Assembly (NCBI GenBank): GCA_022826345.1
Contig: JAJDVB010000106.1
Location: 67,410-131,409, forward strand
Origin: Alphaproteobacteria bacterium
GTDB lineage: Bacteria; Pseudomonadota; Alphaproteobacteria; UBA828
Reading direction: 5' to 3'
DNA: 64,000 nucleotides
Part shown: positions 44,037 through 48,264 of the stretch, piece by piece
Layout: every line of letters starts with the position of its first letter
Position numbering within the stretch: the stretch's first letter is position 1
Made by a program: the position numbers and the translations under genes
The notes under the pieces: generated by a model
Told to the model about the DNA's origin: nothing
Database searches by the model: none
Seen by the model: only the letters and a program-made list of their open reading frames with translations

Positions 44037-44233
44037 GGTTTCCCCCTGCCGTTCCGCCGCCTCTCCACCCGCAGTCACAGGTGAGTAACGAGAACTGTCG
44101 CTCAAACGTAGCAGGATTGTTCCCCAATCTCGATTCCGTAGCCCGCGATCTTGCTCAGACCCGAGAAGGTCCGGTGGCTTTGCGCTCCGTGGCCGTGTGT
44201 TTATATGGCGAAGCCATCGGAACCCGAGTCGCA

Positions 44234-45046
44234 ATGAGTGCGCCCGTCGATGCCGTGACCAGAATTGGTCGTCGAGTGACGCGTGAACTCGACCGGTTGA
44301 AGAAGTATCGACTGGCGGCCGGGCTCCTTTCCTTCGCCGGCCTCGTGCTCGGCACTCTTCGCGATCTGGCGCCGATCATCGTGGTGGTCGCGGTGTTCCA
44401 GGTCGCGATTCTGCGTCAACCCTTCCCCGATCTCGGCGGCATCATCGGCGGCCTCGTGCTCGTGATGCTTGGGCTCGCGCTCTTCATCAAGGGCCTGGAG
44501 ATGGGCCTGTTCCCGCTTGGCGAGGGTCTGGCCCAGGGGTTCGCGCAGAAGGGCAGCCTGTTCTGGCTGCTCGTTTTCGCCTTCGCGCTCGGTTTCGGGA
44601 CCACGGTCGCGGAGCCCGCGTTGATCGCCGTCACGGGTGAGGCCGCCCGGGTCGCCGCAGACGCGGGCGTCGTTGCCGCTGACGTGGACGCCATGGATTC
44701 CTACGCGCTCGGGTTGCGCTACACGGTCGCCGTCTCGGTCGGCGTCGGCATCACGCTCGGCGTGCTCCGCATTCTCAAGGGCTGGCCGCTCCACTACTGG
44801 ATCATCGGCGGTTACATCATCGCCGTCGGTCTGACCTTCCTCGCGCCGGACGAGATCGTGGGGATTGCCTACGATTCCGGCGGGGTTACGACGTCCACCA
44901 TCACTGTGCCCATGGTGACGGCCCTCGGCGTCGGTCTCGCCACGGCGATTCGCGGGCGCAACCCTCTGATCGACGGCTTCGGCCTCATCGCCTACGCGAG
45001 CCTCACGCCGATCATTTTCGTGCTCGTTTTCGGCATGGTGTTCTGA
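44234..45046 (+). CDS. DUF1538 family membrane protein (first, divergent copy)
   Basis: 270-residue integral membrane protein with about seven hydrophobic segments. Family motifs: [23 protein letters not shown] and [26 protein letters not shown] near the C-terminus. The ATG at 44234 replaces a longer frame to 44081. It differs much more from the next two genes than they do from each other and has an extra insert around residue 140 ([18 protein letters not shown]). It is 12 bp upstream of the second copy. Role unknown; conserved polar motifs inside membrane segments (TTVAEP, DSGGVT) suggest transport. Confidence 0.85.
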
Positions 45047-45058
45047 GGGGACGGCGCC

Positions 45059-45844
45059 GTGGAACTGCTCGCCCGCATTCCTGCCGTCAGTTTGGACACG
45101 GTGCGCGACGAGGCCCCGCTGATCGGCCTCGTGCTGTTTTTCTGCGTCGTCGTCCTGCGCCGGCGCCCGCCAAATCTTGGCCGCCTCATCGTGGGCTTCG
45201 TCTACGTCACCATCGGGCTCGCACTCTTTCTCATCGGGCTGGAACAGGCTCTCTTCCCCCTCGGCAAGACCATGGCGGCTCAACTGACCGACCCGGCATT
45301 CCTCGGCATCGGGGAGGGCGCGACGGCGCACTGGCTGGACTATGGATGGATCTATGCCTTCGCGGCAGCCATCGGCTTTGGCACCACCATCGCGGAGCCG
45401 TCGCTGCTCGCCGTCGCCGAGAAAGCCGGCGCCGTCTCCGGCGGCACGATCAAACCTTGGGGCCTGCGCATCGCGGTTGCCATCGGCGTCGCGGTCGGAG
45501 TCGGCTTGGGCGCAGTCCGCATCGTCATTGGGCTGCCGCTGCACTATCTGATCATGGCCGGCTACGCGATCGTGATCGTCCAGACGATCTTCGCTGCGCG
45601 CAACACCATCCCGCTCGCCTACGATTCCGGCGGCGTCACGACCTCGACCGTCACGGTGCCGCTGGTCGCCGCCTTGGGTCTCGGGCTCGCCGCCAACATG
45701 CCGGGCCGCAGCCCGCTGATCGACGGCTTCGGACTTATCGCGTTCGCCAGTGTTTTCCCCATCATTGCCGTGCTGGGCTACGCACAACTCTCGTCGGCGC
45801 TTGAGGCTGCAGAAAAGCGCCGCCGCAGGCGCGGTCACGCCTGA
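45059..45844 (+). CDS. DUF1538 family membrane protein (second copy)
   Basis: 261-residue membrane protein that starts with GTG after GAGGGG. Seven or so hydrophobic segments. It carries the same two motifs as the first copy: FGTTIAEPSLLAVAEKAGAVSGG and [45 protein letters not shown]. By eye about three quarters of residues match the third copy, so these arose by tandem duplication. In many DUF1538 proteins two such halves are joined in one polypeptide; here they are separate chains that could assemble as a heteromer. No substrate can be named. Confidence 0.87.
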   Translation: MELLARIPAVSLDTVRDEAPLIGLVLFFCVVVLRRRPPNLGRLIVGFVYVTIGLALFLIGLEQALFPLGKTMAAQLTDPAFLGIGEGATAHWLDYGWIYAFAAAIGFGTTIAEPSLLAVAEKAGAVSGGTIKPWGLRIAVAIGVAVGVGLGAVRIVIGLPLHYLIMAGYAIVIVQTIFAARNTIPLAYDSGGVTTSTVTVPLVAALGLGLAANMPGRSPLIDGFGLIAFASVFPIIAVLGYAQLSSALEAAEKRRRRRGHA

Positions 45845-45878
45845 TGCGGATGCCTGTCACGGCCTTCGGGGGTGCTGC

Positions 45879-46667
45879 ATGGTAGACATTCTTGTCGTCT
45901 TACCGTCGGTGGGCCTGGATACGGTGCGCGACATCGTGCCGCTGCTCGCCATCGTGCTGTTCTTCCAGATCATCGTCCTGCGCCAGCGCCCGGCGAATCT
46001 CGGCCGGATCGTGATCGGCTTCGTCTATGTCGTCGTCGGGCTCGTGCTCTTCCTCATCGGGTTGGAGGAGGCGCTCTTCCCCCTCGGCAAGACGATGGCC
46101 GCCCAACTGACCGACCCGGCCTTCCTCGGCCTTGCGGCGGGCGCGACCGCTCATTGGCTCGACTACGGCTGGATCTACGCCTTTGCGGCAGCCATCGGCT
46201 TCGGCACCACCATCGCGGAGCCCTCGCTCATGGCCGTTGCGCGCAAGGCCGGAGCCGTCTCGGGCGGGACGATCAGCCCCTGGGGCCTTCGAATTGCCGT
46301 TGCCGCGGGCGTTGCCGTCGGCGTCGGGGTGGGAACCGTCCGCATCGTCACCGGGGTGCCGCTCCACTATCTGTTCATGGGCGCCTACGCGCTCGTGATC
46401 CTGCTGACCATCTTCGCCTCGCGCAGCATCATCGCGCTCGCCTACGATTCGGGCGGCGTCACATCGTCGACCGTGACCGTGCCGCTGGTGGCCGCTTTGG
46501 GCCTCGGCCTCGCCGCCAACGTGCCGGGGCGCAGCCCGATGCTCGATGGCTTCGGCCTTATCGCGTTCGCCTGCGTCTTTGCCGTCATCGCCGTGCTGGG
46601 GTTTACCCAGCTTTCGTCGGCGCTCGCCGCCCTGCGCAGGCGCCGGTCATCCGGGAAAGGAACCTGA
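45879..46667 (+). CDS. DUF1538 family membrane protein (third copy)
   Basis: 262-residue near-twin of the preceding gene, with matching ALFPLGKTMAAQLTDPAFLG, GATAHWLDYGWIYAFAAAIGFGTTIAEPSL and [22 protein letters not shown] blocks. It begins at ATG 45879, 34 bp after the second copy, and lies 3 bp upstream of the PII-like gene. DNA identity is high within the conserved blocks and lower at the ends. Tandem position and close similarity mean a recent duplication with divergence mainly at the termini (SALAALRRRRSSGKGT versus SALEAAEKRRRRRGHA). Confidence 0.87.
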   Translation: MVDILVVLPSVGLDTVRDIVPLLAIVLFFQIIVLRQRPANLGRIVIGFVYVVVGLVLFLIGLEEALFPLGKTMAAQLTDPAFLGLAAGATAHWLDYGWIYAFAAAIGFGTTIAEPSLMAVARKAGAVSGGTISPWGLRIAVAAGVAVGVGVGTVRIVTGVPLHYLFMGAYALVILLTIFASRSIIALAYDSGGVTSSTVTVPLVAALGLGLAANVPGRSPMLDGFGLIAFACVFAVIAVLGFTQLSSALAALRRRRSSGKGT

Positions 46668-46670
46668 ACG

Positions 46671-47021
46671 ATGCGTTTCAAGCTCATCATGGCGCTTGTG
46701 GATTCCGGCGAAACTGAAGCCGTCCTCCACACCGGCCGCCGCGCTGGTGCGACCGGCGCGACCATCATTACGGGCTGCCGCGGCGAGGGTCTTGAACCGG
46801 AGAAGACCTTTCTCGGCTTGAGACTGACCGGCCAACGCGACATCCTGCTGTTCCTGGTCGAGGAACACATGAGCCGCGCCGTGCTGGAGGAGATCGCGAC
46901 GGACGCGGCTTTCGAGGAAAAGTCGGGGACGGGGATCGCGTTCCAGATCGCCATCGAAGACGCGGTCGGTCTTTCTCATCAGATCGCCGAGATCAAGCAC
47001 GAGATCGAGGACCAGATATGA
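46671..47021 (+). CDS. PII-like signalling protein of the DUF1538 operon
   Basis: 116-residue ferredoxin-like protein of the PII/GlnB superfamily. RFKLIMALVDSGETEAVLHTGRRAGATGATIITGCRG is the PII-type beta-alpha-beta start; KSGTGIAFQIAIEDAVGL corresponds to the B-loop that in PII binds nucleotide phosphates. The T-loop region between them (about residues 37-50) is short and lacks the Tyr51 uridylylation site, so this is a stand-alone variant. AAAGGAACCTGAACG precedes the ATG. It overlaps the CBS gene by 4 bp (ATGA). PII-family proteins often plug transporters, which fits the DUF1538 neighbours. Confidence 0.85.
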   Translation: MRFKLIMALVDSGETEAVLHTGRRAGATGATIITGCRGEGLEPEKTFLGLRLTGQRDILLFLVEEHMSRAVLEEIATDAAFEEKSGTGIAFQIAIEDAVGLSHQIAEIKHEIEDQI

Positions 47022-47476
47022 GCACAAAGGCGAGCACGGCCACGGCAGCGTCGCAGGGGGCTCAATTCAACACGGTGCGCGCGGTGATGTCGCCGATGCC
47101 GGCCCCGATCGACGGCATGGCCACGGTTCACGAGGCCCTGGAGCTGATGCGCGAGAACAACGTGTACTCGCTCGTGGTCGAGCGCCGCCGGCCCGGTGAC
47201 GAATACGGTATGGTCGTGGTTTCCGACATTGCCAACAAGGTGATAGCGGACAACCGCTCACCCGACCGGGTGAATGTCTACGAGATCATGTCGAAGCCGG
47301 TGCTCACCATCAGCGCCGACATGGAAATCAAGTACGCGATCCGCCTGCTCGGCCGCTTCGGCCTGTCGCGTAGTGTGGTGGTGGATGGCAACGAGGCGGT
47401 CGGCTTCGTAACGCTGACCGACATGGTGTTTCGCTTCTATGAGCAGGAAGCGATGCGGCGCGAGGCGAGCGGGTAG
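47018..47476 (+). CDS. CBS-pair protein of the DUF1538 operon
   Basis: 152-residue protein made almost wholly of two CBS domains: residues about 20-85 (VRAVMSPMPAPIDGMATVHEALELMRENNVYSLVVE) and about 87-145 (VYEIMSKPVLTISADMEIKYAIRLLGRFGLSRSVVVDG). CBS pairs bind adenosine nucleotides and control transporters and enzymes. It overlaps the PII-like gene (ATGA), which implies joint translation and probably a shared function. No enzyme domain is attached. It is the last gene of the five-gene set. Confidence 0.88.
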   Translation: MSTKASTATAASQGAQFNTVRAVMSPMPAPIDGMATVHEALELMRENNVYSLVVERRRPGDEYGMVVVSDIANKVIADNRSPDRVNVYEIMSKPVLTISADMEIKYAIRLLGRFGLSRSVVVDGNEAVGFVTLTDMVFRFYEQEAMRREASG

Positions 47477-47490
47477 GTCGAACGCAAGCG

Positions 47491-48264
47491 ATGACCGCGT
47501 CTGACGCAATGCCGCGGGCGGCGCTGGTCACCGGCGCCGCAACGCGCATCGGCCGAACCATCGCCGAGGCGCTGGCAGAGGACGGCTGGGCGGTCGCGGT
47601 GCACCATCACGAATCCGGCGACGCCGCCAAGAATGTCGTCGCGGACATCGAGGGCGCCGGCGGCCGCGCCGTGGCGCTCAGGGCCGATCTCGCCGAGGAG
47701 GCCGAGGTCGAGACCCTGGTGGCGCGGGCGACGGAGGCGCTCGGGCCGCTTGGTTGCCTCGTCAACAATGCGTCCCCGTTCGAGCACGACGACCTGCAAA
47801 GCGCGACCCGCGCGAGCTGGGAGCTCCACATGGCGGTCAATCTGCGCGCGCCCTTCGTGCTGATGCAGAAGTTCGCGGCAGCGCTGCCGGACGAGGCGGA
47901 GGGCTGCATCGTCAATATGCTCGACCAGCGCGTCTGGAGCCTCACGCCGCACTTCATGTCCTACACGCTCAGCAAGGCGGGCCTCTGGACGCTCACGCAG
48001 ACGGCGGCGCTCGCGCTTGCGCCCCGCATCCGGGTGAACGGGATCGGCCCCGGACCGACCCTGCCGAGCGCGCGCCAGAGCCCCGAGCACTTCGCTGCGC
48101 AATACGAAGCCACGCCGTTGAAGCGGGCGGTGGCGCCCGGCGACATCGCGGACGGCGTGCGGTTTATCCTCGCCGCCCGCGCGCTGACCGGGCAGATGGT
48201 CGCCCTGGACAGCGGTCAGCATCTCGGCTGGGCGATGCCGCAGGGGAAAGAAATCCTGGAATGA
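47491..48264 (+). CDS. Short-chain dehydrogenase, pteridine reductase/FolM-like
   Basis: 257-residue SDR. The cofactor motif TGAATRIG (Thr14-Gly21) matches the TGxxxRxG pattern that separates pteridine reductases (PTR1, FolM) from ordinary SDRs (TGxxxGxG). The catalytic pair YTLSK (YxxxK) is near residue 163. Such enzymes use NADPH to reduce dihydropterins, dihydrofolate or dihydromonapterin. It overlaps folB by 4 bp (ATGA), which backs a pterin role. It lies 14 bp after the CBS gene but is probably a separate functional unit. Confidence 0.85.
   Translation: MTASDAMPRAALVTGAATRIGRTIAEALAEDGWAVAVHHHESGDAAKNVVADIEGAGGRAVALRADLAEEAEVETLVARATEALGPLGCLVNNASPFEHDDLQSATRASWELHMAVNLRAPFVLMQKFAAALPDEAEGCIVNMLDQRVWSLTPHFMSYTLSKAGLWTLTQTAALALAPRIRVNGIGPGPTLPSARQSPEHFAAQYEATPLKRAVAPGDIADGVRFILAARALTGQMVALDSGQHLGWAMPQGKEILE

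What the first reader, a model, noticed from the sequence alone, without database searches (positions are those of the whole stretch)
44234..47476. Five-gene unit of three DUF1538 membrane proteins with a PII-like and a CBS protein
Three tandem DUF1538 membrane genes are followed within 3-4 bp or overlaps by a PII-superfamily protein with a short T-loop and a two-CBS protein. PII and CBS proteins are classic nucleotide-sensing controllers of transporters. The gene set therefore looks like a transporter, possibly assembled from several half-size subunits, that is gated by adenine nucleotides or another small effector. No function is known to me for DUF1538, so this may be a new regulated transport system. 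Seen: gene order, overlaps, motifs. Inference: transport and regulation.
Basis: partly seen in the sequence, partly recalled or inferred. Interest (0 to 1): 0.8.

Follow-up and report, generated by a model that had tools for sequence, protein, structure and literature searches.

The report
PII- and CBS-partnered sodium/proton antiporter operon
Five adjacent genes encode three membrane proteins of the DUF1538 family, a PII-like protein and a CBS protein; the membrane part is likely a sodium/proton antiporter, and because a PII-like gene follows the DUF1538 genes in nearly every cluster examined, the antiporter is predicted to be switched on and off by it.

Summary
The five genes are there as described, with small corrections to spacing. 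That DUF1538 has no known function is out of date: the DUF1538 pair UmpA/UmpB of Halomonas zhaodongensis is an experimentally shown Na+(Li+,K+)/H+ antiporter (PMC5484666). Gene 1 is UmpA-like; genes 2 and 3 are UmpB-like tandem copies (77% identical, dN/dS well below 1). The usual unit elsewhere is A+B; A-B-B is a lineage variant.

The new part is the partner genes. Of 206 distinct DUF1538 clusters with at least 1.3 kb of downstream sequence, 200 have a PII-like gene downstream and 145 also a two-CBS gene. The PII link spans several phyla and holds for fused A-B forms. None of my literature searches found it in print.

Best explanation: an UmpAB-type antiporter whose activity is likely set by docking of a PII-like trimer, with the CBS protein as a probable adenine-nucleotide sensor. 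Antiport by this copy, physical contact, ligand and direction of control are inferred. The published Halomonas clone had umpAB without PII or CBS and was active, which points to regulators rather than required subunits.

The parts
44234..45046 (+). umpA-like gene, DUF1538 membrane protein (270 aa; an in-frame GTG at 44081 is an alternative start)
   Evidence: PF07556 E 1.7e-65; best NCBIfam model UmpA, 354 bits, below its 490 cut-off
45059..45844 (+). first umpB-like gene, DUF1538 membrane protein (261 aa)
   Evidence: PF07556 E 1.5e-64; best NCBIfam model UmpB, 312 bits, below its 500 cut-off
45879..46667 (+). second umpB-like gene, tandem copy of the first (262 aa, 77% identical)
   Evidence: PF07556 E 2.2e-62; UmpB 302 bits; dN 0.168, dS 0.597 against the first copy
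46671..47021 (+). PII-like protein (116 aa), predicted docking regulator of the antiporter
46779..46835 (+). T-loop region of the PII-like protein (residues 37-55), predicted to dock on the membrane subunits
   Evidence: loop of lower confidence between strands 29-36 and 56-64 of the model; five residues shorter than GlnB-1 in the alignment
47018..47476 (+). two-CBS-domain protein (152 aa), probable adenine-nucleotide sensor
   Evidence: PF00571 E 1e-16, two stretches; nearest PDB sequence CBS-CP12 5nmu, E 5.2e-20
44612..44614 (+). codon of Glu127 of the umpA-like protein, in the GF-TT-AEP motif (predicted ion-site residue)
   Evidence: invariant in the three window copies; the residue in the same motif, E100 of P0121, is invariant in the 111 aligned proteins
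44873..44875 (+). codon of Asp214 of the umpA-like protein, in the [10 protein letters not shown] motif (predicted ion-site residue)
   Evidence: invariant in the three window copies; the residue in the same motif, D176 of P0121, is invariant in the 111 aligned proteins

Best explanation
The five genes encode an UmpAB-family membrane complex, likely a Na+(Li+,K+)/H+ antiporter with one A-type and two B-type subunits, which a co-encoded PII-like protein is predicted to lock from the cytoplasmic side as a trimer, probably under the influence of a two-CBS protein that would sense adenine nucleotides. Shown here: the genes, their families, the A-B-B make-up, the PII fold of the predicted model, and the near-constant downstream PII-like gene across phyla. 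Shown in print for the Halomonas relative: antiport activity and an A/B hetero-dimer. Inferred: antiport by this copy; that the PII-like protein forms a trimer and that its shortened T-loop (conserved KTF-GL) docks on A/B; that docking inhibits antiport and so stops proton inflow when energy is low; that the CBS protein tunes docking according to ATP/AMP. CBS looks like an add-on: it was not found in 55 of the 200 clusters that have the PII-like gene.
For: Linkage: 200 of 206 distinct clusters have a PII-like domain within 1.5 kb downstream, 145 also CBS within 2.5 kb (criteria); 74 of 74 and 68 of 71 evaluable loci of the 80-locus set; 107 of 125 DUF1538-bearing genomes among 398 Pseudomonadota at strict cut-offs, 114 of 125 with weaker matches and a later region. 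Specificity: of the 118 genomes with this PII type, 5 lack DUF1538. It also holds for the best UmpA-model matches in one order: 28 of 29 evaluable of 30 loci have PII, 27 CBS. PII-CBS stop-start overlap of 4 nt in 58 of 70 counted pairs. Independent annotation on a Methylocystis rosea plasmid: DUF1538, DUF1538, P-II family nitrogen regulator. One DUF1538-DUF1538-PII fusion protein (L305). Against the halves of one fused protein (P0121), 88 of 88 single A proteins fit the N half better and 88 of 88 single B proteins the C half (88 diverse pairs of 160), in line with the published hetero-dimer. Antiport of a family member, and activity of clones holding umpAB but no PII or CBS ORF: PMC5484666. 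Precedents: SbtB-SbtA and GlnK-AmtB (passages).
Against: UmpA/UmpB equivalog cut-offs are not met (354 of 490; 312 and 302 of 500), so the substrate may differ. PII-regulated transporters seem restricted to those that can work as trimers according to one review, while UmpAB is reported as a hetero-dimer. Basic residues recalled as phosphate contacts of classical PII are not conserved, so a nucleotide may bind differently or not at all. Coevolution gave no interpretable interface. Four genomes carry umpAB without PII beside it (G085, G094, G117, and G246 with only 1.2 kb to read), G122 has one such extra copy (L325), and L413 is another.
Confidence: 0.55

Rival explanations
1. The PII-like protein regulates a DUF1538 transporter, but the transported substrate in this clade is not Na+/H+ (for example another ion or a carboxylate); only the Halomonas pair is an antiporter.
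For: NCBIfam equivalog cut-offs are missed by the window proteins and by the five relative pairs scanned; 0 of 293 genomes reached the UmpA cut-off. The fused P0121 passes it (507 of 490) only as the sum of two stretches. In the papers found, one pair of the family has been assayed.
Against: Acidic and polar motif residues are invariant in the window's copies and in 111 aligned relatives; two cable-bacteria papers use UmpAB homologues (56% identity in one of them) as markers of salt adaptation, without an assay in the passages seen.
Confidence: 0.25
2. PII-like and CBS proteins are structural or assembly subunits rather than regulators: they are always bound and needed for stability.
For: Almost obligate linkage, one covalent DUF1538-PII fusion, three PII-like stretches in one chain beside a fused DUF1538 protein (L291, L292).
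Against: The Halomonas umpAB clones worked in E. coli; the original insert had four ORFs, none of them PII or CBS. CBS was not found in 55 of the 200 PII-linked clusters.
Confidence: 0.1
3. The PII-like and CBS genes are merely co-transcribed; they act on another target such as gene expression or metabolism and sense the ion or pH state that UmpAB controls.
For: In G085 and G117 the PII-CBS pair lies on another contig than umpAB; some PII-like genes of this type stand alone beside other genes, in G130 beside a dihydrouridine synthase, a sensor kinase and an NtrC-type regulator.
Against: Linkage kept in four sampled phyla and through gene fusion of A and B, one fusion protein, and 113 of 118 genomes with this PII type carry DUF1538.
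Confidence: 0.1

Closest known systems
UmpAB Na+(Li+,K+)/H+ antiporter of Halomonas zhaodongensis (PMC5484666; NCBIfam NF041627, NF041628)
   Same: Both membrane types of DUF1538 in the same order, A then B; conserved acidic residues; the best UmpA-model matches in one order carry the same PII and CBS neighbours.
   Different: Window has a second B copy; model scores are under the equivalog cut-offs; the paper's text has no mention of PII, P-II or CBS and the cloned fragment held neither. I did not see the Halomonas genome itself, so whether PII follows umpB there is open.
SbtA-SbtB bicarbonate transporter with PII-like regulator (PMC8352866)
   Same: Transporter gene followed by its own PII-like gene; PII fold; the T-loop is the contact.
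   Different: No C-terminal CGPxGC motif; CBS partner in addition; UmpAB is reported as a hetero-dimer, SbtA is a trimer; nothing in my searches relates DUF1538 to SbtA.
GlnK-AmtB
   Same: A PII-superfamily protein that controls a membrane transporter.
   Different: T-loop five residues shorter; classical phosphate-contact residues (recalled) not conserved; different transporter.
CPII of Thiomonas intermedia (PDB 5d4n)
   Different: 21% identity; I did not test for a carboxysome context, which is what I recall for CPII.
PII-NG proteins beside CzcABC metal pumps (passages of PMC7726332)
   Same: Divergent PII proteins encoded beside proton/cation antiporters.
   Different: Partner is a CzcABC metal pump, not DUF1538. 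The founding paper (Sant'Anna 2009) was not read, so the phylogenetic relation is open.
CBS-domain control of ion transport (MgtE, CorB, OpuA; passages of PMC10710835, the name OpuA recalled)
   Same: Paired CBS domains as nucleotide-dependent switches.
   Different: Here the CBS pair is a separate small protein, not part of the transporter chain.

Membership tests
DUF1538 (PF07556) | Domain score above the curated cut-off of 22.6 bits | tested here: met
   220.7, 217.6 and 210.5 bits over nearly the whole profile
UmpA/UmpB equivalogs (NF041627, NF041628) | Score above the curated cut-offs of 490 and 500 bits | tested here: not met
   354.4, 312.3 and 301.8 bits; five relative pairs also below
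UmpAB-type antiporter | One A-type and one B-type subunit adjacent, A first | tested here: met
   Best models A, B, B; in 88 diverse pairs the first gene fits the A half and the second the B half of P0121
UmpAB-type antiporter | Na+(Li+,K+)/H+ exchange in membrane vesicles | not testable with these tools
   Needs a vesicle assay
PII superfamily (PF00543) | Domain score above the cut-off of 25 bits and the PII fold | tested here: met
Classical PII (GlnB/GlnK) | Full-length T-loop and basic residues K90, R101, R103 contacting ATP phosphates (recalled) | tested here: not met
   T-loop five residues shorter; the aligned regions read GTGIAF and DAVGL, hydrophobic or glycine at the equivalent columns
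SbtB | C-terminal CGPxGC motif (conserved in some homologues) and an sbtA neighbour | tested here: not met
   The protein ends ...IKHEIEDQI; the gene next to it on the 5' side is DUF1538
PII-NG | Place in a separate proteobacterial PII clade, usually beside metal efflux genes | not tested
   No PII-NG reference sequences were aligned; the neighbours here are DUF1538 genes
CBS-domain sensor | Two CBS domains in tandem | tested here: met
   PF00571, 61.4 bits, two stretches
CBS-domain sensor | Ribose/phosphate motif G-h-h-(S/T)-x-x-D (recalled) in at least one domain | tested here: inconclusive
   Window CBS2 reads GFVTLTD; across 153 sequences S/T 112 and D 89, with 25-29 gaps; binding not tested

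The most novel reading that the evidence does not exclude
DUF1538 and a dedicated PII-like protein form one ancient two-part machine, a monovalent cation/proton antiporter with its own PII switch, spread over many phyla. Pseudomonadota often add a two-CBS energy sensor, giving dual PII plus CBS input. The window's A-B-B version, mirrored by one single-chain A-B-B protein (P0122), and chains with three PII-like stretches in a row hint at a three-fold assembly in which a trimeric PII plugs a transporter known so far only as a hetero-dimer.
Probability: 0.35. Interest if true: 0.8.

Novelty: new variant of a known kind. Interest (0 to 1): 0.62.

Why it matters
How bacteria throttle Na+/H+ antiporters is a basic question of salt and pH tolerance. 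DUF1538 was present in 125 of 398 sampled Pseudomonadota genomes, yet in the papers found only one pair has been assayed, and no partner was named in what I read of it. An almost constant PII-like neighbour gives a direct, cheap test: add the PII gene (and CBS) to the published vesicle assay. If it holds, PII control extends to a monovalent cation/proton antiporter and possibly beyond transporters that work as trimers, the limit suggested in a 2023 review (PMC10710835, passages).

Tried and rejected
Rejected: DUF1538 as a family of unknown function (led to PMC5484666). Rejected: three DUF1538 genes as the standard unit. Rejected: the third gene as debris; conserved acidic residues are intact, dN/dS is about 0.28 against the first B copy, and a partial third copy exists in the separate MAG contig L002, where dN/dS against the window's third gene is about 0.21 over 100 codons; L003 has only two.

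Selection: the 80 loci are the best of at least 576. At least two of the clusters counted (L224, L225) were fetched because of a PII match; most others were fetched by DUF1538 alone. The region list covered a part of the genomes.

Literature: searches gave no paper joining DUF1538 or UmpAB with PII or CBS; only open-licence PMC papers are held. Of the papers with DUF1538 or UmpAB in the text I looked for PII and CBS in three (PMC5484666, PMC12093952, PMC10030654); PMC5996927, PMC6055358, PMC7221264 and PMC6440370 were seen in listings only. Read: PMC5484666 (abstract, sections 5, 6, 10, 13, and term passages), and passages of PMC7726332, PMC10710835, PMC8352866, PMC12093952, PMC10030654 and PMC13255231.
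Full report
What is there. Five genes lie on the + strand from 44234 to 47476. Three encode DUF1538 membrane proteins, one a PII-superfamily protein, one a protein with two CBS domains. Gaps are 12, 34 and 3 nt, then a 4-nt overlap. NCBIfam places gene 1 nearest to UmpA and genes 2 and 3 nearest to UmpB, all under the equivalog cut-offs. Genes 2 and 3 are 77% identical, with dN 0.168 and dS 0.597. A MAG relative (L002) has the start of the same third gene before its contig ends; the more distant L003 has only two. So the triplet is a lineage variant, A-B-B. An A-B-B order also occurs in one 759-aa protein from a metagenome contig with three DUF1538 stretches.

DUF1538 is not uncharacterised. 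UmpA and UmpB of Halomonas zhaodongensis let E. coli KNabc grow at 0.2 M NaCl or 5 mM LiCl only when co-expressed (UmpB alone helps somewhat at lower salt), co-precipitate as a hetero-dimer and show Na+(Li+,K+)/H+ antiport with an optimum at pH 9.0 (PMC5484666). The original 4.2-kb insert carried four ORFs: a truncated citrate transporter, an MFS permease, umpA and umpB. No PII or CBS gene was among them, and the text mentions neither. Hence UmpAB can work without them, and they are more likely regulators than required parts. Caveats: E. coli has its own PII proteins (recalled), and I did not see the Halomonas genome downstream of umpB.

The partner genes. An alignment of the window's three DUF1538 proteins fetched the best 80 loci from genome contigs without reference to neighbours. 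Of 74 loci with at least 700 nt beyond the last DUF1538 domain, 74 have a PII-like domain there; of 71 with at least 1,300 nt, 68 have CBS. Among 398 Pseudomonadota genomes 125 carry DUF1538 (124 over the family's cut-off) and 118 carry this PII type at E 1e-12. In 107 of the 125 a PII-like match lies within 1.7 kb downstream of a listed DUF1538 match on the same strand. Of the other 18, six have a weaker PII match adjacent (L116-L119, L122, L130), G037 has it in the fetched region (L215), and G173 has a partial match (L213). Four end at a contig edge (G121, G219, G237, G249), G157 is a fragment and G273 a sub-cut-off match. That leaves G085, G094, G117 and G246 as exceptions (G246 with 1.2 kb to read); in G085 and G117 PII and CBS sit together on another contig. 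Conversely, 5 of the 118 PII-bearing genomes have no DUF1538. Of these five I scanned the neighbours in one, G130: a dihydrouridine synthase, a sensor kinase and an NtrC-type regulator.

Other groups. DUF1538 was found in 6 of 118, 13 of 151 and 8 of 149 genomes of the phyla around L071 (Desulfopila), L034 (titled Chloroflexi) and L062 (titled Acidobacteriota). Of the 19 evaluable clusters there, 18 have PII downstream and the last (L299) has it upstream. Six records labelled as phage match DUF1538; the five that I opened, from gut and wastewater samples, carry DUF1538 followed by PII, four of them with two PII-like stretches in one frame, and no CBS match. They are probably bacterial DNA. On a Methylocystis rosea plasmid the public annotation reads DUF1538, DUF1538, P-II family nitrogen regulator (one of two matching plasmid records opened).

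Counting clusters once by the first 300 nt (250 in all), 13 fragments and 31 with short downstream sequence were set aside; 200 of the 206 left have PII within 1.5 kb downstream and 145 also CBS within 2.5 kb. In two of the six misses (L206 second cluster, L299) PII lies upstream instead. In the order of Motiliproteus (L045), 40 of 293 genomes have a UmpA-model match at E 1e-100, none over the curated cut-off; of the 30 best loci, 29 reach far enough past umpB, 28 of those have PII and 27 CBS; L413 has neither.

Fusions. Against the halves of one A-B fused protein (P0121), 88 of 88 single A proteins fit the N half better and 88 of 88 single B proteins the C half (88 diverse pairs of 160). One 741-aa ORF (L305, Chloroflexi draw) carries two DUF1538 domains and a C-terminal PII-like domain (domain E 1.8e-14 by my iterated profile, not found by Pfam), followed by a separate PII gene. 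Two loci of the Desulfopila draw have one chain with three PII-like stretches beside a fused DUF1538 protein (L291, L292; the weakest stretches are marginal at E 0.0052 and 0.0095).

Mechanism. Precedent: the SbtB trimer inserts its T-loops into SbtA, and GlnK does so in AmtB (passages of PMC8352866 and PMC10710835). By analogy the PII-like protein likely docks as a trimer on UmpAB from the cytoplasm and locks it, with the CBS protein adding an adenine-nucleotide input. Stopping antiport at low energy would prevent proton leak. None of these regulatory steps has been tested. The same review says PII use appears restricted to transporters that can work as trimers; UmpAB is reported as a hetero-dimer, so either the rule has an exception or UmpAB assembles further. 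The A-B-B sets and triple-PII chains fit a three-fold arrangement but do not show it.

Verdict. The partnership was not described in the papers that my searches reached. New variant of a known kind (PII-partnered transporter).

Noticed in passing
P0122 (759 aa): Single metagenomic protein with three DUF1538 domains in A-B-B order, mirroring the window's three genes.
   Followed up: partly
L291 4324-5433 and L292 3388-4533: Proteins with three PII-like stretches in one chain, next to fused DUF1538 proteins: possibly natural single-chain PII trimers. The weakest stretches are marginal.
   Followed up: partly
L305 2375-4600: 741-aa ORF: two DUF1538 domains fused to a C-terminal PII-like domain, followed by a separate PII gene.
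   Followed up: partly
L319 943-3968 and similar orders in L193, L195, L315, L316, L318: Fused DUF1538 clade: two tandem PII-like genes followed by a protein of about 550 aa and one of about 460-475 aa; in L319 these are a SpoIIE-type phosphatase and a fumarase/lyase. Only L319 was scanned for these two.
   Followed up: partly
L173, L174, L175, L176, L189: PII-like genes of this type without DUF1538 beside them, next to an ORF of about 530 aa (electron-transfer flavoprotein ubiquinone oxidoreductase in L173, the only one scanned); the PII match of L173, L174, L176 and L189 runs over one stop codon.
   Followed up: partly
L178 103-4026: PII-like gene followed by a dihydrouridine synthase, a PAS sensor kinase and an NtrC-type regulator: a nitrogen-regulation-like setting for the same PII type, in a genome without DUF1538. 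L179 and L187 have ORFs of similar sizes in the same order, not scanned.
   Followed up: no
L206 3496-7687: Two DUF1538 systems back to back (fused A-B, PII, CBS, then PII and two single DUF1538 genes) in one genome.
   Followed up: no
MT835548.1, MT837261.1, MT835770.1, MT839021.1, OR847559.1: Records labelled as phage that carry DUF1538-PII operons; probably bacterial DNA filed as phage.
   Followed up: partly
window 47491-48264: Short-chain-dehydrogenase-like ORF (by eye) starts 14 nt after the CBS gene on the same strand; it may be in the same transcript, but I did not check whether it is conserved there.
   Followed up: no
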